Part shown: one piece after another, positions 918-10,160 of the stretch
How positions within the stretch are numbered: position 1 is the stretch's first letter
How the letters are laid out: the number at the start of each line of letters is the position of its first letter
Notes under the pieces: model-generated
What the model was told of the DNA's origin: nothing
Seen by the model: only the letters and a program-made list of their open reading frames with translations
Database searches by the model: none
Assembly: GCA_021413925.1 (NCBI GenBank)
Contig: JAIOPL010000025.1
Span: forward strand, 1 to 62,563
Length of the DNA stretch: 62,563 bases
Reading direction: 5' to 3'
DNA from: Verrucomicrobiota bacterium
GTDB lineage: Bacteria > Verrucomicrobiota > Verrucomicrobiia > Chthoniobacterales > UBA6821
Translations under genes and position numbers: made by a program

Positions 918-1187
918 CTACCGGAACAGATCTGCGTGCGTTCCGGTTCTTTCCAGACGGAGATGGCTCTGATCGAGCGTGTAGATCAATAACCAGTCTG
1001 GTTCGATATGCAGATCCCTGCTCCCTTTGAACTCACCCTGCAGAGCATGATCCCGGAGCGACTCTGGAAGAGGCTTTGCATCGATCAGAAGATCGAGAAC
1101 AGCACGCAGTCTTTTCAGGTCTTTTCCTCGTTTCTCGGCCTTTTTGACATCCTTCTTGAATTGGGATGTCCTGCTGAGTGACCTCAT
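918..1187 (-). CDS. YafQ-type mRNA interferase toxin (RelE superfamily)
   Basis: An 89-residue toxin of the RelE/YafQ group, which cleave mRNA on the translating ribosome. Residues known to matter in E. coli YafQ have counterparts: His47 (RDHAL), His60 (DLHIEPDW), Asp64, Trp65, His84 (GTHADLF) and Phe88, so it looks intact. Its ATG overlaps the last codons of the antitoxin gene by 4 bp (1184-1187), the usual translational coupling of a TA pair. The stop is 28 bp from direct-repeat copy 1, so the operon sits snugly between two repeat copies. Confidence 0.88.
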   Translation of the reverse strand: MRSLSRTSQFKKDVKKAEKRGKDLKRLRAVLDLLIDAKPLPESLRDHALQGEFKGSRDLHIEPDWLLIYTLDQSHLRLERTGTHADLFR

Positions 1188-1444
1188 AGACCGAGGTCAG
1201 TATAGAGTTCTTTTTTGGAGGAGAACTTCTCGACGCCTTCACCCTTCTTGCTTCTGCGAAGAACCTTTGCTGTGGTTTTATTCGGAATGGCCACTTCAAA
1301 GGGGAGTCCCTTTCGCAGTTGAATTTGGTGAAAGAGCAGTTGGATCGCATCCGAAACCGTAAGGCCGAGCGCAGAAAGGGTTTCCTCTACCTCCTCTTTA
1401 AGGCTGGGGGAGAGTCTAGCGCGAATGATGGATGTCTTAAGCAT
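1184..1444 (-). CDS. RelB/DinJ family antitoxin
   Basis: An 86-residue partner of the YafQ-type toxin. The N-terminal half (IIRARLSPSLKEEVEETLSA, then LGLTVSDAIQLLFHQI) is the ribbon-helix-helix DNA-binding and dimerisation fold of DinJ/RelB; the charged C-terminal tail would wrap the toxin. It is first in the operon and overlaps the toxin start by 4 bp. A perfect 12-bp palindrome (1463-1474) lies 18 bp upstream of the ATG and is a likely autoregulatory operator. Confidence 0.88.
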   Translation of the reverse strand: MLKTSIIRARLSPSLKEEVEETLSALGLTVSDAIQLLFHQIQLRKGLPFEVAIPNKTTAKVLRRSKKGEGVEKFSSKKELYTDLGL

Positions 1445-2678: not shown

Positions 2679-5126
2679 ATGCGTTCCGTCAAATTACTCC
2701 CCCACACGATTTTGGCACTGCTTCTGACGGGAATGAGCTTTATACCGGTCACCCAACTTCAGGCTGGGGCTTCTAATAAGAGCGGTAATCCCTACGCTGG
2801 TCCTGCAGGTAATTATTATTTCAATGGTGGCACCTTCAGCGCTGTGATTCGCGGACAGAACCTCTCCGGAACCATGTTGGTTTCCGCCCCTCCGGGAGCC
2901 TCGGGAGGCAATACTAACACCAACAGCTCCGGAGGAGTTGCCACTATCATTTATCAGGGAAACGTCTTTCAGGCCAATGCCAATGCAAATGTGGACGCAT
3001 CGTCGAGTCAGATCGGAGGAAATTTTTATGGAGGCATCACGCTATCCGGTGCCCGAAGCAATAGCATCCTGGCTAGTACGACGAACCCGCTTACCCCGGT
3101 GATTTCCAATACGAATCTCTTTGCGACGAATTACACAAGGAGTGTAACGAATGAAATTAATATTATTCCTTACATCTCCTCGACGACGAATTGGGATTTT
3201 ACCATTCAGACCTATACGAATACCAATCCCGTGGTAACAGTAACTACCAATAGCAACCCCGTGACGACGAGTTTTACAAATAATGCCCCAGTGGTGACGG
3301 TGACAACTAACAGTAATCCCGTGATCACGAGTTACACGAACGAGTTCCCCGTAGTGAGTATCTCGACGAACACGAACTATAACATCACCAGCTTCACGAA
3401 CTCAGGTCCCGTGGTGACCGTGGTGACGAACTCGAATCCCGTGATCACGAGTTACACAAATCAGTTCCCAGTGGTAACTATCTCGACCAATACGAACTAC
3501 AACATCACCAGCTACACGAACTCAGGTCCCGTGGTGACCGTGGTGACGAACTCGAATCCCGTGATCACGAGTTATACGAATGCAACTCCTATTGTAACCA
3601 TTTATACAAATAATACTTACACTTATTCTTATTCGACGAATTCAAACCCCGTGGTGACGACCTACACGAATTACACTTACACGTACAATTATTCGACGAA
3701 TTCGAATCCCGTAGTGACCACTTACACGAATTACACTTACACGTACAATTACTCTACAAACTCAAATCCTGTAGTTACGACCTATACTAACTACTCCTAC
3801 ACGTACAATTACTCTACAAACACAATATATACAACGAATATATACTCAACAAATTCAGTGTATACAAATGAATTTGCTCCAGTGACTTTAATTGGTTTTC
3901 AACCTAATGTTACTTATACTCCGGGAACTAATCCACCTGCTACTGCTCAGTACTCGACAAATTATATTCAGTATACTTATGTAGATTATGGTCAATTTGG
4001 AACAAATATTGAAAACATCACTTCATATGGCACAAATATAATCACAAATACCGCCGTAAATGTAAACACTAATACAAATTACTCCATTCTGGCCTACACC
4101 AATAACTTCCCAACCGTCACTGTCTCGACGAACACAAATTACGATATTCAGAGTTTTACGAATAGCTTCCCTGTAGTAACTGTTTCGACGAACACAAATT
4201 ACGATATTCAGAGTTTTACGAATAGCTTCCCTGTAGTAACTGTCTCGACGAACACAAATTACGATATTCAGAGTTACAAAAACACGAACCCTCAGGTCTA
4301 CTTTCAGACGAACTACGACATAGCCTACCAGACCTATACAAATACGAATCCTCAGGTGAATTTCATCACGAATGCGACGTACGCTTACGTACCCTTTACC
4401 AATAACAATCCTCAGGTCTACTTCCAGACAAACTTTGATATTACTTACCAGACCTACACAAATACGAATCCTCAGGTGAATTTCATCACGAATGCAACGT
4501 ACGCTTACGTACCCTTTACCAATAACAACCCGCAGGTCTATTTCCAGACAAACTACACTTATACCTACGCATTTTCTACGAATACGAATCCCGTGATCAC
4601 CACGCTCACGAACTACGTCTACACCTACACACCCTCCACAAACACCAATCCTGTGGTGACGGTCATCACAAACTCCAATCCCATCGTCACCTACACCACC
4701 AATACGAATGCTATCACTTATATAGCTAATGGAGAATTACTATCCAACTACACTATCTCCAGTTTTACAAATACCAACTCGATCAACGTCTACGCCACCA
4801 ATATGTTGATGACGAATTATCTGAATCTCCAGCCGGTCGCCACTACAGCCTACAATGATGCAGTTCAGTTTATCGGGTCCTATGTCGGCCCTCTCAAAAA
4901 CCAGTATCCCAATCAGACATTCCTAGGAAATGGGGCTGTGACTCAGAAGCAACTTTCTTTTGGTACGGATGGAATACCCACCGTTCAGATGCAGAATTAC
5001 CCGATTTCTGTTCAGGGTATTCTGATTTCGTCAACGATGCAGTCGTTTCCGATATATTCCAATTCTGTCCCCTACGCCACGACGATCTATACACTGACGA
5101 ATCTAACAACCACCTCATTCCGGTAG
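2679..5126 (+). CDS. Secreted protein with twenty 20-residue Asn/Thr/Tyr-rich tandem repeats
   Basis: An 815-residue protein with a classical signal peptide (hydrophobic core about residues 8-24, likely cleavage after LQAGA). A glycine/asparagine-rich region follows, then two arrays of exactly 20-residue repeats: ten units at residues 178-377 and ten at 472-671, separated by a diverged linker. Units follow the pattern S-Y-T-N-x-x-P-V-V-T-V-x-T-N-S-N-P-V-I-T, alternating short beta-prone and TN-rich turns. This suggests a beta-solenoid, a fibre or an amyloid-like surface protein, but the family is not recognised. The C-terminal 140 residues are not repeated. Next downstream are a pseudopilin and an Ig-like/ASH protein, so a role in a surface structure is plausible inference only. 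Base composition is more AT-rich than the neighbours. Confidence 0.85.
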   Translation: MRSVKLLPHTILALLLTGMSFIPVTQLQAGASNKSGNPYAGPAGNYYFNGGTFSAVIRGQNLSGTMLVSAPPGASGGNTNTNSSGGVATIIYQGNVFQANANANVDASSSQIGGNFYGGITLSGARSNSILASTTNPLTPVISNTNLFATNYTRSVTNEINIIPYISSTTNWDFTIQTYTNTNPVVTVTTNSNPVTTSFTNNAPVVTVTTNSNPVITSYTNEFPVVSISTNTNYNITSFTNSGPVVTVVTNSNPVITSYTNQFPVVTISTNTNYNITSYTNSGPVVTVVTNSNPVITSYTNATPIVTIYTNNTYTYSYSTNSNPVVTTYTNYTYTYNYSTNSNPVVTTYTNYTYTYNYSTNSNPVVTTYTNYSYTYNYSTNTIYTTNIYSTNSVYTNEFAPVTLIGFQPNVTYTPGTNPPATAQYSTNYIQYTYVDYGQFGTNIENITSYGTNIITNTAVNVNTNTNYSILAYTNNFPTVTVSTNTNYDIQSFTNSFPVVTVSTNTNYDIQSFTNSFPVVTVSTNTNYDIQSYKNTNPQVYFQTNYDIAYQTYTNTNPQVNFITNATYAYVPFTNNNPQVYFQTNFDITYQTYTNTNPQVNFITNATYAYVPFTNNNPQVYFQTNYTYTYAFSTNTNPVITTLTNYVYTYTPSTNTNPVVTVITNSNPIVTYTTNTNAITYIANGELLSNYTISSFTNTNSINVYATNMLMTNYLNLQPVATTAYNDAVQFIGSYVGPLKNQYPNQTFLGNGAVTQKQLSFGTDGIPTVQMQNYPISVQGILISSTMQSFPIYSNSVPYATTIYTLTNLTTTSFR
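3210..3809 (+). repeat. 60-bp tandem repeat array A (10 units)
   Basis: Ten consecutive 60-bp units, each encoding 20 residues, with no length change. Units 4 and 6 and units 8-10 are very similar at DNA level; others share mainly the protein pattern. Confidence 0.85.
4092..4691 (+). repeat. 60-bp tandem repeat array B (10 units), with 120-bp higher-order repeat
   Basis: Ten further 60-bp units. Two adjacent units around 4141-4260 differ at a single base, and a 120-bp two-unit block (about 4321-4440 and 4441-4560) is nearly duplicated. This points to recent expansion by slippage or unequal recombination. Confidence 0.85.
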
Positions 5127-5284
5127 TCTTGATGACCTTATTTCATTTGGCCTGTACCCAATGGTCTGGCTTGGTTCTGGACTTTGAGAATCTCCCCTCA
5201 AGTTGTTGAAATCTCATTTTGCTCTCAGCAGGAATTGGTGGCTCGGTACACTGATTGTCACATGTGGTCCTTATTAATTTGAAG

Positions 5285-5821
5285 ATGAGAATTTTACTTC
5301 AGAGGGGGTTCACATTGGTCGAGTTACTAGCGGTCATCTTCATTATTTCCATTTTGATGGCGTTGCTCTTCCCGGCAATGAAGAGTGTGATTCCCAGGGC
5401 ACAAGAGGTGGTCTGCATGTCTCATCTGAGGCGTCTCTGGCTGGGATTTGCACCTAGCGTGACGGACGGTACAGGTTGGCCGCAGGTTCCTGCTTCTATC
5501 CCGATAGGCTCACAGGCTGAGCAGCAGTGGTGGATCGATACATCCTCGAATCTCTTTAACATCCCACCCAGTGACTGGCGCTGCCCTACGGTCACGGCTC
5601 ATGTTGGACTGCCAAATGCGGCTAATCCATCCAATACGATTCCCCTGATCGATTATATGCCGACGCTCTTCGATGCCTTCCCGATGACCCCTAATAAGTG
5701 GCCGAATATGCCTTGGTTCATGGAGATATCCAATGCCCATGGAAAGGGGAATCTCATGATCCGCCCTGATGGGTCGATCATGCCCGCCCCGGGATTCCAG
5801 ACGGCACCGTTGGCTCGGTAA
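5285..5821 (+). CDS. Type IV pilin-like / pseudopilin protein
   Basis: About 178 residues from the ATG at 5285, giving the leader MRILLQRG followed by FTLVELLAVIFIISILMALL. This is the class III signal and N-terminal helix recognised by prepilin peptidase PilD, with Glu at mature position 5. A TTG at 5255 in frame would add ten residues; I prefer 5285 because it gives a standard short leader. The C-terminal domain is small and contains Cys residues (VVCMSHL and WRCPT) and a late PDGS motif, as in the pseudopilins abundant in Verrucomicrobiota and Planctomycetes. The partner assembly genes are not in this window. It lies between the repeat protein and the ASH-like protein, suggesting joint surface function. 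Confidence 0.85.
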   Translation: MRILLQRGFTLVELLAVIFIISILMALLFPAMKSVIPRAQEVVCMSHLRRLWLGFAPSVTDGTGWPQVPASIPIGSQAEQQWWIDTSSNLFNIPPSDWRCPTVTAHVGLPNAANPSNTIPLIDYMPTLFDAFPMTPNKWPNMPWFMEISNAHGKGNLMIRPDGSIMPAPGFQTAPLAR

Positions 5822-5836
5822 TAGAGGCTCAGCTTT

Positions 5837-7429
5837 ATGAGATGTCCCGCTCTTTTATTTCTAGGATTACAGATCCTAAGGCTCTCTTCGGTTCATTCAG
5901 AAATCTCCCTTCCCCTACAGACCCTATCGAAGCCTACATTACTCCTGCATCCAGTAAGAGCTTCTGTAGAGCGGGGAGGAAGTGGTGACATTCTGATAGA
6001 AGCTATTCCTGCTGATGGTGCTGATATCAGGTTAACGATCAAGCAGCCTCCCTCCCATGGAACTCTGGGTGAGATTAAAAGCGCGTCTCCAAGCACCTTT
6101 CGGATCACTTATACGAACAATGGTGACAAGGATAAGGAAGATGAATTCACCTTCCGGATCAGGACATCTGGCAAAACATGGCTCACATCTCGCGCCTCCC
6201 TTTCGATCGAAGATCCCACGGACAGTCTCCAGATCTCTCCTAGATCGCTCGATTTCGGAAGGGTAGGAGTGGGGGAATCCTTTTCTAAAAAGCTCCTGCT
6301 CAAGAACCGACTGGCGGGATCACTTTCGGGCACTCTCGTCATCCCTTCTCCATGGAGGGTTGAGGGAGATGATTCCTATGATCTTGGGTTTGGGGAGAGT
6401 AGGAATTTCACAATTGTCTATGAACCCCATGGAGTGATGGATTCCTATGCCACGGTGCACCTTCTTTCCTCTGGGAAGGGACCAAGTCTCACTCTGCATG
6501 GTGAGTCGGTGGTGCCTTTTACCATAGCTCCGGAATCGGTAGAAATTCTCCCTGGATCAGTCGGGCCCGAGGTGAGTGTCAAAAACTCTCTGGAACACCC
6601 TATCGTGCTGAAGGCGGTCACGGATGATCTGGTGGGTGTGATCCCTATGGTCTCTCTTAAGCCAAAGGGTGAGATGAAGGTACGTCTCAAGGATATTCAA
6701 CATCCGATCAAGGAGATGAATACGTCCGTCAGGTTTGTGATGGGTGGCTATGAAACGGGAGTTGCGGTTAAGATTCTCCCTTTGCCACCATCAACCAACG
6801 AAGTTCTTAAGGCTACTCATAGTGATCCAAAACCTAAGTTGCCTAAGGATAGGGGAATCGAATCTAACGACACGACGCATGTCACTACGGTCCACTTGCC
6901 GACACACACGGTAGATTCATCTTCGGTACAAATCGGCACAGGCCTTCCGCAGATACAGACTGGCCCATCTCTCTTGCCAGAGGAGGAGCAGGTGAAACTC
7001 CGAAGGCTTCTGGTGAGTGATCTTTCCTATTTCCTTAAACCGGGATGGATTGGATGGAATCTGACTCTTCAATGGAGCTATGACGATCCGCCACCCAAGG
7101 AGTTTCTGATTGAGGAGAAGATCATGAATTCTTCTGAAAATGTCGCAGACAGTGAACTGACTAGTCAGGAGTACCGTCGAATCAAGCCTTACTGGATCAG
7201 ACCTCAAGCTCATGGAATCTGGCAGGCGAGTATCCCCTCTCCACCAGCGGGATTCCGATTCATAAGAATTGCCCCAGTCCAGCAAGATACTGACAAAACA
7301 ATCTGGGCTTCCTTCCAGATTCAGATGCCTTCGAATCACCTGATCTGGGAGCAATACAGGGGACCCTTTGCTCTCCTGCTGCTTGTTATCCTCGTGGTTC
7401 TTGTCCTGAGAATGACTGGTAGGCTTTAA
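5837..7429 (+). CDS. Exported protein with Ig-like and ASH-like domains and a C-terminal anchor
   Basis: A 530-residue protein with an N-terminal signal-like hydrophobic stretch (PALLFLGLQILRLSSVHS) and a C-terminal transmembrane helix (about residues 507-525, ALLLLVILVVLVL) followed by a short basic tail. Residues about 45-125 look like a cadherin-like/Big-type Ig domain (PPSHGTLGEI, FRITYTNNGDKDKEDEFTF). Residues about 130-230 resemble an ASH/'choice-of-anchor D' domain (ISPRSLDFGRVGVGES, FTIVYEP). A second beta domain follows and then a Pro/Ser/Thr-rich linker. It starts 15 bp after the pseudopilin stop. It is probably an extracytoplasmic beta-sandwich protein anchored in a membrane; function unknown. 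Confidence 0.75.
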   Translation: MRCPALLFLGLQILRLSSVHSEISLPLQTLSKPTLLLHPVRASVERGGSGDILIEAIPADGADIRLTIKQPPSHGTLGEIKSASPSTFRITYTNNGDKDKEDEFTFRIRTSGKTWLTSRASLSIEDPTDSLQISPRSLDFGRVGVGESFSKKLLLKNRLAGSLSGTLVIPSPWRVEGDDSYDLGFGESRNFTIVYEPHGVMDSYATVHLLSSGKGPSLTLHGESVVPFTIAPESVEILPGSVGPEVSVKNSLEHPIVLKAVTDDLVGVIPMVSLKPKGEMKVRLKDIQHPIKEMNTSVRFVMGGYETGVAVKILPLPPSTNEVLKATHSDPKPKLPKDRGIESNDTTHVTTVHLPTHTVDSSSVQIGTGLPQIQTGPSLLPEEEQVKLRRLLVSDLSYFLKPGWIGWNLTLQWSYDDPPPKEFLIEEKIMNSSENVADSELTSQEYRRIKPYWIRPQAHGIWQASIPSPPAGFRFIRIAPVQQDTDKTIWASFQIQMPSNHLIWEQYRGPFALLLLVILVVLVLRMTGRL

Positions 7430-7719: not shown

Positions 7720-7757
7720 TTGACAAGTACCCATATTACCATACGCTATTCCGTATG
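7720..7757 (+). promoter_or_regulatory. Promoter and palindromic operator of vapBC (7755)
   Basis: TTGACA at 7720-7725 is a consensus -35. A perfect inverted repeat CATACG-ctattc-CGTATG (7740-7757) overlaps the likely -10 region and the start codon at 7755. That is the position where a ribbon-helix-helix antitoxin would repress its own operon. It begins only about 13 bp after the hemL fragment ends, marking the island boundary. Confidence 0.5.
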
Positions 7758-8012
7758 AAGACGACGCTCGAACTGCCCGACGCTCTCTTGATGGAGGTCA
7801 AGGCTGTGGCTGCACGCCGTCGGACGACGATGCGATCGATCATGGAGCACGCCCTGCGCCGTGAACTGGGTGAGCTTGCTCCCGCTAAGAAAGAGCAAGA
7901 AGTTCTCACGGAAGTGAATGCCTACGGGTTCCCGATACTGAAAAGGAGGGGTCGCGGGCGCATCACCAGTGAGATAGTATACGCGCTTCAGGATCAGGAA
8001 GCAGAGGAGTAG
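7755..8012 (+). CDS. Ribbon-helix-helix antitoxin (VapB/Arc-like)
   Basis: An 85-residue protein starting KTTLELPDALLMEVKAVAA, the beta strand and first helix of an Arc/MetJ-type repressor, then TTMRSIMEHALRRELG as helix 2. The C-terminal half is charged and would contact the toxin. The toxin gene starts 2 bp after its stop. A palindrome overlapping its start codon (7740-7757) is the likely operator. It belongs to the island bounded by the hemL fragment. Confidence 0.82.
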   Translation: MKTTLELPDALLMEVKAVAARRRTTMRSIMEHALRRELGELAPAKKEQEVLTEVNAYGFPILKRRGRGRITSEIVYALQDQEAEE

Positions 8013-8014
8013 TC

Positions 8015-8440
8015 ATGGTTGTTCTCCTGGATGTGAATGTGCTGATTGCCCTGGGGGATCCGTTTCATACTCACCATGAACGGGTGCAGGAGTGGTTCCA
8101 TCATGAGCGAGCTCGGCCATGGGCTACCTGCCCGATCACGGAGAATGGATTCCTAAGAATCCTAGGTCACCCGAACTACAAGGACTCGCCGGGATCTCCT
8201 GCAGAACTTCAGGAGGTGCTCCGAGTGATCTGCTCGGCTCCTGGGCACCAATTCTGGAGTGATGCCATCTCATTCAGGGACGAAAAGAAATACCCTCAAC
8301 TTCCTGGTTCCAAACAGCTCACGGATTTCTATCTGCTGGCACTGGCAATCCATCACAAAGGAAAACTTGCCACGCTGGATCGCCGAATTGATGCCTCTGT
8401 CATCCCTGGTGGAGAGAAGGCCTATCTCGTGATTCCGTAA
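8015..8440 (+). CDS. vapC: VapC-family PIN ribonuclease toxin
   Basis: A 141-residue PIN-domain toxin. The four acidic positions are present: Asp6 (LLDVNVL), Glu43 (ITENGFLRIL), Asp104 (LTDFYLLALA) and Asp122 (LATLDRRI). TENGFLRIL with the GHPNY-type loop places it in the subgroup annotated 'TA system VapC family ribonuclease'. VapC enzymes cleave tRNA or rRNA; the substrate cannot be read from sequence. It is translationally coupled to the antitoxin (2-bp gap). It converges on hipA, separated by 104 bp containing short GGGACAC repeats. Confidence 0.87.
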   Translation: MVVLLDVNVLIALGDPFHTHHERVQEWFHHERARPWATCPITENGFLRILGHPNYKDSPGSPAELQEVLRVICSAPGHQFWSDAISFRDEKKYPQLPGSKQLTDFYLLALAIHHKGKLATLDRRIDASVIPGGEKAYLVIP

Positions 8441-8544: not shown

Positions 8545-9870
8545 TTATGCTTCGCGCAACTTCTGCGCTTGATTGCGGATTCCTTCAAAAATCGCATCTC
8601 GGATTTTCTTGGGAAAGTCCTTGGGGATCTCCCGATCCACGACGGCCAGAACTTTGGGAACTTGTGTGGTGATTTCCTCGATTAAGTCGGAAGCATTCCC
8701 CAGTCCCCCTAGCTTTGCGGCCCAGTCCCAGTGGTAGGGACGGATTTCATGAATCTTTCGGTGCAGGCTCTTCCCCTTCACACCCATGGCCATGGTGGCT
8801 TTCCTGAGATCAAGCAGGCCAGTGCCATGTCCAATGATTGGCCACATGGAGATCACGTCATAGAATGGGGTCAGTCGATAGGTGCCACCGCGCTCGTGGA
8901 AGATCGAGAAGTTCTTGGCGTGACCATCCGTTGCGGCCATTAGCCAGAATACAATCTGGGCTTTCACAAAGGCCCTCTTGTCCTCCATGGGGGTCGAACT
9001 CGCATTGAGAACCCTTAGAATGTTCGCAATACCTGGACCTCCTTGGTTTTCATACTTCTCCGTTACTGGCACTCCGAGGGCCTGACAGAAATCCTCCTGA
9101 GGCAGACGAGCAATCCATGATCCCACCATCAGGGCCCGATCAAAGCGTTCAACGGAAAGCACCTTTCTTTCCCCGAAGCGCAGAATCTCACATTCAGCCG
9201 TCTTCAGGCCAAAGGCATTCATGATGCGCGAGCTGATCCATTCATTCTCCACTGATCCCTGCATATCCACCTGGAGATTTCCAATGAGCCCCAGCGGGAG
9301 CTTGAAAATATGGGTCGTCGGCGTAGCTCCAGCAGGACGCCACCAGCGCCCCTTATGAAAAAGAAACGCCGTTTTCTCCTGAGCCCCGGCTATCGAGATT
9401 CTGAACTCCTCATCCGCATCCATGGCCATGAGAGGGCTCCCTGAGATAGCCGCATTGAGCGCCTGCTCGACACCCTTCTCATCGAGCACCTCCCCCTCAA
9501 TTCGATCAAACCCTATTGGCGTTTCGCCCTCCGGCAGCAACTGAATTGCTCCCACGCATTCCCTGCCCACGGCTGTGAGCAGATCAAATGGCTTTGTCGA
9601 GCGCGTCCCGTAACGAGTCCTTATCTTTCTTCGGATCTCTTCCGTGTCAGGAAGCAGATTGTCGAAGAAATCGGTCACCATCTTCCCACGCAGGGGAACA
9701 TTCCCAGGTGTGAAGGGAAGCGACAGCGAAAGCACCCTCCTCTCCGGCGCATCAATCCATTCCGGGTCATAGTGGAAACTCGACGCATTGGAAACCGGCG
9801 GAGTCCACACGCCCACCCGGATACCGTTCATCCAGATTGCTAACGGGGTTCTGAGCGACTTGGTGGCCAT
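8545..9870 (-). CDS. hipA: HipA-type serine/threonine kinase toxin
   Basis: A 441-residue protein, about the length of E. coli HipA (440). The N-terminal domain (LAIWMNGIRVGVW to FDNLLPD) is the HipA_N fold. The kinase core has the ATP-loop region SIAGAQEKTAFLF (about 159-171), the catalytic DGHAKNFS (Asp315, Asn320) and the metal-binding Asp338 in FYDVIS, matching the E. coli catalytic pattern. HipA phosphorylates glutamyl-tRNA synthetase in E. coli and causes growth arrest; other HipA-like kinases have other targets. The hipB antitoxin gene is 8 bp upstream, giving the classical order. No inactivating change is seen. Confidence 0.93.
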   Translation of the reverse strand: MATKSLRTPLAIWMNGIRVGVWTPPVSNASSFHYDPEWIDAPERRVLSLSLPFTPGNVPLRGKMVTDFFDNLLPDTEEIRRKIRTRYGTRSTKPFDLLTAVGRECVGAIQLLPEGETPIGFDRIEGEVLDEKGVEQALNAAISGSPLMAMDADEEFRISIAGAQEKTAFLFHKGRWWRPAGATPTTHIFKLPLGLIGNLQVDMQGSVENEWISSRIMNAFGLKTAECEILRFGERKVLSVERFDRALMVGSWIARLPQEDFCQALGVPVTEKYENQGGPGIANILRVLNASSTPMEDKRAFVKAQIVFWLMAATDGHAKNFSIFHERGGTYRLTPFYDVISMWPIIGHGTGLLDLRKATMAMGVKGKSLHRKIHEIRPYHWDWAAKLGGLGNASDLIEEITTQVPKVLAVVDREIPKDFPKKIRDAIFEGIRNQAQKLREA

Positions 9871-9878
9871 GGCTCGCT

Positions 9879-10160
9879 CTACCAGTTAGAGGGTGCTTTC
9901 TGAGCACTCTTAGCAACAGGCTTCTTGGCAGTCATCTCAGGGACAACCCTCACCTCCAGCCTCCCTCCCAGCGCCGTGACAAGCCGGGAGATCTGCTCAA
10001 AACTCGTCCGATCAGGTGCAGCCTCGATCCGGGCAAGACGCCCCTGTGTGACGCCAAGAAGGCGAGCGGCATCCTCCTGATTGAGGCCACGAGTCTGCCT
10101 CAAAGATCGCAAAATCGCTCTAAGCTCTATCGGCGTTGAGATTGAGTAGTTCTCTTTCAC
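9879..10160 (-). CDS. hipB: HipB-type antitoxin, XRE-family repressor
   Basis: A 93-residue protein whose central region (LRQTRGLNQEDAARLLGV, TQGRLARIEAAP) is a Cro/C1 helix-turn-helix. The C-terminal tail is Lys/Ala-rich and flexible, as in HipB proteins targeted by proteases. It lies 8 bp upstream of hipA on the same strand. The region upstream contains several TTTATTAC/GTAATAAA half-sites, including a perfect inverted repeat, which are likely to be its binding sites. Confidence 0.9.
   Translation of the reverse strand: MKENYSISTPIELRAILRSLRQTRGLNQEDAARLLGVTQGRLARIEAAPDRTSFEQISRLVTALGGRLEVRVVPEMTAKKPVAKSAQKAPSNW

What the first reader, a model, noticed from the sequence alone, without database searches (positions are those of the whole stretch)
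2679..7429. Possible undescribed surface system: 20-residue-repeat protein + pseudopilin + anchored Ig/ASH protein
Three consecutive same-strand genes encode exported proteins of different kinds: a long repeat protein with alternating beta-prone and TN-rich units, a protein with a class III prepilin leader, and an anchored beta-sandwich protein. The order suggests a surface fibre, its processing or tip, and its anchor. I recognise no known system with this trio. Seen in sequence: signals, repeats, anchor. Inferred: joint function.
Basis: partly seen in the sequence, partly recalled or inferred. Interest (0 to 1): 0.72.

Follow-up and report, generated by a model that had tools for sequence, protein, structure and literature searches.

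The report
Pseudopilin-linked exported β-barrel gene module
Three neighbouring genes in a freshwater verrucomicrobial genome form a conserved, apparently undescribed module: a small exported barrel protein that almost always sits next to its own pilin-like protein and travels with a membrane-anchored Ig-domain protein; the long repeat that caught the eye is a species-specific loop insertion in the barrel.

Summary
Window 2679-7429 holds, on one strand, an exported 815-aa repeat protein (P1), a class III prepilin-like protein (P2) and an Ig/ASH protein with a C-terminal membrane anchor (P3). The trio is not coincidental. P1 lies directly upstream of P2 on the same strand in nearly every P2 locus examined across the order. 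P3 directly follows in 13 of 13 assessable genomes of the genus, is linked in 7 of one other family, and elsewhere co-occurs with P2 although unlinked (70 both, 64 neither, 22 one only; 156 genomes). P2 is an H-x9-DG pseudopilin subfamily, not part of the genome's T2SS cluster. The 'repeat fibre' reading does not hold. Relatives of P1 have a median of about 235 aa and form a small antiparallel β-barrel with no Pfam match. The 20-residue repeat (a doubled TN-x8 decapeptide) is a ~600-aa insertion in one loop; other lineages have independent Thr/Ser/Asn-rich insertions in a different loop. Best model, inferred: P1 is a Sec-exported, non-pilin effector carried by its dedicated pilin P2 on the cell's Amuc_1098-type type IV pilus, analogous to TcpF-TcpB or CofJ-CofB, with P3 as membrane-anchored accessory. 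No function was tested.

The parts
2679..5126 (+). P1: exported small beta-barrel protein with a ~600-aa TN-rich repeat insertion (815 aa)
   Evidence: ORF; relatives 173-815 aa, profile A1; no Pfam match for P0001 and nothing significant for relatives
2679..3047 (+). P1 N-terminal part: signal peptide, conserved Gly/Pro/aromatic tail (GASNKSGNPY), barrel strands 1-5 (residues 51-121)
   Evidence: AF2 (strands at pLDDT about 75-95); tail motif 82/91 members
3048..4853 (+). TN-x8 decapeptide / 20-aa repeat insertion (residues ~123-725)
   Evidence: GC 41.7% against 54% for the window
4854..5126 (+). P1 C-terminal barrel strands 6-8 (residues 729-784) and tail
   Evidence: AF2; similarity to the C-terminal half of relatives
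5285..5821 (+). P2: orphan H-x9-DG pseudopilin (likely start ATG 5285; ORF from TTG 5255)
   Evidence: PF07963 and TIGR02532; 16/16 aligned members carry H-x9-[DGN]G; A2 profile 1.4e-72
5837..7429 (+). P3: Ig/ASH (HYDIN-like) protein with C-terminal membrane anchor
   Evidence: A3 profile 5.3e-108 and 1.2e-42

Best explanation
The trio is a type-4-filament-associated module of Chthoniobacterales and some other Verrucomicrobiae. P1 is exported by Sec and folds as a small antiparallel beta-barrel behind a flexible, conserved N-terminal tail. P2 is its dedicated pilin, processed by the prepilin peptidase and inserted in a filament built by the cell's own machine (Amuc_1098-type secretin, PilB-type ATPases). 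P1 binds P2 by its tail, leaves the cell on or at the tip of that filament, and is displayed or released. The barrel loops, which expand repeatedly into Thr/Asn/Ser-rich repeats, are the variable outward face. P3, anchored by its C-terminal helix with its Ig domains in the periplasm, holds or hands over P1 or P2. Shown: gene pairing, co-occurrence, domain anatomy, the loop position of the repeat. Inferred: use of the pilus machine, P1-P2 binding, P1 location, role of P3, role of the repeat.
For: P1 lies immediately upstream of P2, same strand, in 19/19 loci of a named genome-wide scan. In a further 59 P2 hits, mostly from other genomes, 49 met a strict adjacency rule; most of the rest are tandem P1 copies, diverged P1 recognisable by eye, an over-extended ORF start or contig ends. 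Flanking genes differ between families, so the pairing is not a frozen chromosome block. P2-P3 co-occurrence: 70 both, 64 neither, 12 and 10 single in 156 genomes (Fisher p 1.7e-20; 8e-4 by genus). All 33 P2-positive genomes of 56 have the Amuc_1098-family secretin, while 8 of 23 P2-negative ones lack it (p 3e-4). The genome has PilB/GspE-type ATPases, a PilT-like ATPase and such a secretin. The P1 tail motif (G/N)P(F/Y/W) or GGP is in 82/91 members, against 1.6% of windows elsewhere, in a stretch AF2 leaves at pLDDT 46-58. Precedent: TcpF hooks its flexible N-terminus on the minor pilin TcpB and is exported by the pilus (PMC9565799); non-pilin tip effectors are a recognised class (PMC10191384).
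Against: No interaction, localisation or secretion datum exists. P1-P2 were not found in the pilus gene cluster; one P1 copy next to an Amuc_1098 secretin is a single case among 37 secretin loci. Many genomes have the secretin but no P1-P2. Co-occurrence tests are not corrected for phylogeny, and family f5 accounts for half of the secretin-negative genomes. The P1 barrel resembles soluble (avidin, FHbp) and outer-membrane (OmpX, Ail) barrels about equally, so P1 may be a membrane protein. The tail motif may be conserved by common descent alone.
Confidence: 0.4

Rival explanations
1. P1 is an 8-stranded outer-membrane beta-barrel (OmpX/Ail-like) whose extracellular loops carry the variable repeats; P2 is a pseudopilin of the same surface organelle, but P1 is inserted by BAM and not carried by the pilus.
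For: OmpX Z 8.0, Ail 7.7, PagL 7.5 among the top structural matches. The two loops with independent expansions (strands 5-6 in the window, near the last strand in genus g172) would lie on the same, outer side of such a barrel.
Against: No conserved C-terminal aromatic; several members have tails after the last strand. The strand 2-3 loop, which would be periplasmic, is also long and variable. Soluble barrels score about as well.
Confidence: 0.2
2. P1 is a substrate of the genome's type II secretion system and P2 a substrate-specific pseudopilin for it.
For: The genome has a T2SS-like cluster with pseudopilins, a PilN/GspL-like protein, GspM-like protein and a GspD-like secretin. P2 hits GspG below cut-off (27.6 of 88.85 bits).
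Against: P2 is not in that cluster; the cluster's pseudopilin scores only 1.3e-5 with the P2 profile, and all 16 P2 members tested share an H-x9-[DGN]G C-terminus.
Confidence: 0.17
3. One reading: the repeat protein is the surface fibre, P2 its processing or tip factor, P3 its anchor.
For: Regular beta-strand every 10 residues in the repeat model.
Against: The repeat is absent from or different in relatives; median P1 length is ~235 aa. Repeat pLDDT is only about 26-69. P3 has its own membrane helix and no evident sorting signal.
Confidence: 0.08
4. P1-P2(-P3) form a non-exported periplasmic or inner-membrane envelope complex unrelated to filaments; P2 has been co-opted as a membrane-anchored subunit.
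For: P2 stands alone, away from pilus genes; P3 is membrane-anchored.
Against: All P2 genomes tested have the pilus secretin; the prepilin core including the cleavage site and E5 is kept in almost all members.
Confidence: 0.15

Closest known systems
TcpB-TcpF (V. cholerae TCP) and CofB-CofJ (ETEC CFA/III): minor pilin plus secreted soluble effector
   Same: Pilin-type protein and Sec-exported protein encoded together; flexible N-terminal tail on the exported partner; pilus machinery in the genome.
   Different: No sequence relation found; P1 is a small beta-barrel; P2 is an H-x9-DG protein; genes lie outside any pilus operon; a third Ig/ASH protein; binding and secretion untested.
Amuc_1098-type type IV pilus of Verrucomicrobiota
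   Same: Amuc_1098-family secretin in all P2-positive genomes tested; one P1 copy sits next to such a secretin.
   Different: P1, P2 and P3 are not in that gene cluster in the window genome; many genomes have the secretin without P1-P2.
Verru_Chthon cassette and T2SS pseudopilins (TIGR02596/TIGR02599/TIGR02600, GspG)
   Same: Class III leader and hydrophobic helix in Verrucomicrobiota.
   Different: P2 scores far below every curated cut-off except the generic leader; different genomic context; own C-terminal domain with H-x9-DG and WPQ/MPWF motifs.
H-X9-DG prepilin-like proteins of PVC bacteria (TIGR04294)
   Same: Literal H-x9-[DGN]G near the C-terminus in 16/16 aligned P2 proteins.
   Different: TIGR04294 itself matched only 1 of 16 members, at E 0.015.
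HYDIN/ASH/choice-of-anchor D Ig-like proteins
   Same: P3 relatives match PF15780 and PF22544 in 12-13 of 17.
   Different: Bacterial exported protein with an N-terminal extra domain and C-terminal membrane helix plus basic tail.

Membership tests
Type 4 filament pilin (P2) | Class III leader, hydrophobic alpha-1, Glu at +5 | tested here: met
   RG|FTLVELLAVIFIISILMALLF; PF07963 29.9 bits (cut-off 21.2), TIGR02532 30.1 (16.3)
Type 4 filament pilin (P2) | Assembly into a filament | not testable with these tools
   needs shearing or microscopy
T2SS major pseudopilin GspG | Equivalog score and location in the T2SS cluster | tested here: not met
   27.6 bits against cut-off 88.85; P2 on contig C25, T2SS cluster on C26
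Verru_Chthon cassette protein D | TIGR02596 cut-off and four-gene cassette | tested here: not met
   20.4 bits against 70; neighbours are P1 and P3
TIGR04294 H-X9-DG | H-x9-DG motif | tested here: met
   16/16 members carry H-x9-[DGN]G; the window protein has H-x9-DG
TIGR04294 H-X9-DG | Model score in curated library | tested here: not met
   absent for the window protein at E up to 1; 1/16 members at 0.015
T4P non-pilin tip effector (TcpF/CofJ/PilY1/PulA kind) | Exported protein encoded with a pilin | tested here: met
T4P non-pilin tip effector (TcpF/CofJ/PilY1/PulA kind) | Binds the pilin and depends on the pilus for export | not testable with these tools
   no binding or secretion assay; complex prediction not available
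8-stranded outer-membrane barrel (OmpX/Ail) | Fold match clearly above soluble barrels | tested here: inconclusive
   OmpX Z 8.0 against avidins and FHbp about 7
8-stranded outer-membrane barrel (OmpX/Ail) | Terminal aromatic on the last strand | tested here: not met
   C-termini variable: SFR, VGSF, TYY, LTQ, IGN, tails
ASH/HYDIN Ig-like domain (P3) | Pfam gathering score | tested here: inconclusive
   window 22.3 bits against 25.5; 12-13 of 17 members match at E below 0.01, best 4e-11

The most novel reading that the evidence does not exclude
An undescribed pilus-dependent display or secretion system of Verrucomicrobiota: a dedicated H-x9-DG pilin carries a new family of beta-barrel effectors whose loops repeatedly expand into hypervariable repeats, with an Ig-domain membrane protein as loader. 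It would be an evolutionarily separate counterpart of TcpF-TcpB.
Probability: 0.35. Interest if true: 0.75.

Novelty: new variant of a known kind. Interest (0 to 1): 0.55.

Why it matters
H-x9-DG prepilin-like proteins are common in this superphylum and, to my knowledge, have no assigned function. A strict partner gene gives a testable one. If P1 depends on P2, this shows a pilin-effector pair outside pathogens and outside any pilus operon, and explains at least one of the many orphan pseudopilins. The P1 loops also give a natural series of independent repeat expansions on one scaffold (173 to 815 aa), useful for asking what drives surface variation in freshwater bacteria.

Tried and rejected
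Coincidental trio: rejected by synteny, pairing and co-occurrence. Repeat as the defining feature: rejected, relatives lack it. P2 as T2SS GspG or Verru_Chthon D: rejected by curated cut-offs. A shared upstream neighbour of P3 in other families turned out to be reading-frame artefacts. Recurrent secretin neighbour of P1: only one case in 37 loci. PDB sequence search with P1: nothing significant. Foldseek on the P1 model: no match with E below 0.001. Scan for promoters and terminators: counts near shuffles and no + strand terminator-like site between the genes. Paper searches for H-X9-DG, UBA6821, Verru_Chthon, and Verrucomicrobia or Chthoniobacterales with pseudopilin: no description of this module found. 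A first profile scan of named genomes failed for lack of conserved stretches and was redone with a narrower alignment.
Full report
1. What is in the window. The finding's coordinates are right. Three + strand ORFs follow one another: P1 2679-5126 (815 aa), P2 5255-5821 (188 aa; likelier start ATG 5285, leaving 158 bp after P1) and P3 5837-7429 (530 aa, 15 bp after P2). The scan shows no + strand terminator-like site between them. The window is one contig of a 2.4-Mb genome. Named relatives are freshwater Spartobacteria / Chthoniobacterales MAGs.

2. P1. Neither Pfam nor NCBIfam recognises it. Relatives in the genus are only 173-457 aa and match residues 1-150 and 690-815, mostly not the repeat. 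AlphaFold2 of a 224-aa relative gives a small antiparallel beta-barrel (mean pLDDT 75, many strand residues above 90). AlphaFold2 of the window protein gives strands at 51-121 and 729-784 at mostly about 75-95, and low confidence for 123-725. So the repeat is one long loop between strands 5 and 6 of an 8-stranded barrel. The structural second look ties soluble barrels (avidins, FHbp) with outer-membrane barrels (OmpX, Ail) at Z 7-8; the class is unresolved.

3. The repeat. 22.9% Thr, 17.6% Asn, TN every 10 residues; lag-20 identity 0.45 against a shuffle maximum of 0.18. DNA periods are 60 and 120 bp with up to 97% matches, and GC is 41.7% against 54% for the window, which suggests recent expansion (inference). 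The nearest relative (G007) has a 457-aa P1 with a different Thr/Asn-rich loop. In genus g172 of another family, P1 proteins reach about 380-714 aa through other Thr/Ser/Asn/Gln-rich repeats placed before the last strand. Expansion is therefore repeated and independent, and the array of the window is not the conserved part.

4. P2. Canonical prepilin N-terminus; below cut-off for all specific pilin families. Its C-terminal domain carries WPQxP, MPWFxE and H-x9-[DGN]G, the last in 16/16 aligned members. The P2 profile separates it well: full members down to 3.6e-28, best paralogues about 1e-23 to 1e-21. The genome's T2SS cluster lies on another contig and its pseudopilin scores 1.3e-5.

5. P3. 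HYDIN/ASH Ig-like domains, with a C-terminal hydrophobic helix followed by a basic tail in nearly all complete relatives, as expected for an inner-membrane anchor with the Ig domains outside the cytoplasm (inference).

6. Is the trio real? Genome-wide scan with names: P1 directly upstream of P2 in 19/19 true P2 loci. Further set: 59 P2 hits, mostly in other genomes, 49 by a strict rule. The other ten are tandem P1 copies or larger gaps (G387, G381), an over-extended ORF start (G383), four diverged P1 recognised by eye (G357, G348, G349, one G344 copy), one contig end (G358), one paralogue (G044) and G287, where P1 is inverted with a 1374-aa gene between. Flanks differ between families and only P1, P2 and P3 recur widely; in the genus the trio sits near queA-like and hemL-like genes (by sequence; class-III aminotransferase in the window). 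P3 follows P2 in 13/13 assessable genomes of the genus and is linked in 7 of family f7, once in the order P3-P1-P2. Elsewhere it is unlinked yet co-occurs: 70 both, 12 P2 only, 10 P3 only, 64 neither; by genus 20, 6, 3, 12, p 8e-4. Phylum-wide (289 genomes) the three co-occur in the same few lineages. P3 is dispensable: most P2 genomes of family f9 lack it.

7. Machine. The genome encodes two PilB/GspE-like ATPases in tandem, a PilT-like ATPase, a T2SS-like cluster and Amuc_1098-family secretins. All 33 P2-positive genomes among 56 carry that secretin; the 8 without it are all P2-negative. One P1 copy in G270 sits directly upstream of such a secretin. These point to the Amuc_1098-type pilus (whose Akkermansia PilQ was located in the outer membrane, PMC4960237) but do not prove it.

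8. Mechanism. The closest working parallel is the minor pilin plus secreted effector pair: TcpF hooks its flexible N-terminus on TcpB and leaves by pilus elongation and retraction (PMC9565799). P1 has a conserved (G/N)P(F/Y/W) or GGP motif just after the signal peptide, in a stretch predicted flexible, in 82 of 91 members against 1.6% of windows elsewhere. I propose this tail as the docking element for P2. This is resemblance of working, not membership: binding and pilus-dependent export are untested.

9. Verdict. It is novel as a gene module with a new protein family and an orphan pseudopilin, and of a known general kind if the pilus model is right.

Noticed in passing
window 918-1444, 1783-2184, 7755-8440, 8545-10160: The trio is flanked on both sides by toxin-antitoxin genes: YafQ/RelB, a PIN toxin, a second PIN toxin with a small upstream partner, and HipA with an HTH partner.
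   Followed up: partly
G000:C6:51661-56669 and 117294-120158: Two Amuc_1098-family secretin genes in tandem and two MshEN-T2SSE ATPase genes in tandem; the doubling recurs in much of the order. A pilus with two secretins and two assembly ATPases would be unusual.
   Followed up: no
L159:6890-10331 (G270:C57): A second P1-family gene directly upstream of an Amuc_1098-family pilus secretin; not seen in the other secretin loci examined.
   Followed up: partly
L247:3106-5499 (G345), L245:1-2250 (G349), L236:3532-4893 (G350): P1 proteins of genus g172 carry long repeats of other kinds, for example QNKNQNQVASENANASQTAT and DLAKGSSVTAGSVQASTVTQ, before the last barrel strand.
   Followed up: partly
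L217, L218 (G386, G387): Two P1-family ORFs in tandem upstream of P2.
   Followed up: no
L257/L158 (G287:C14): P1 and P2 are inverted relative to each other, with a 1374-aa Ig and DUF5122 propeller protein gene between them.
   Followed up: no
L123:5101-5529: A TIGR04073 exosortase-system-associated protein gene near the trio in a genus relative.
   Followed up: no
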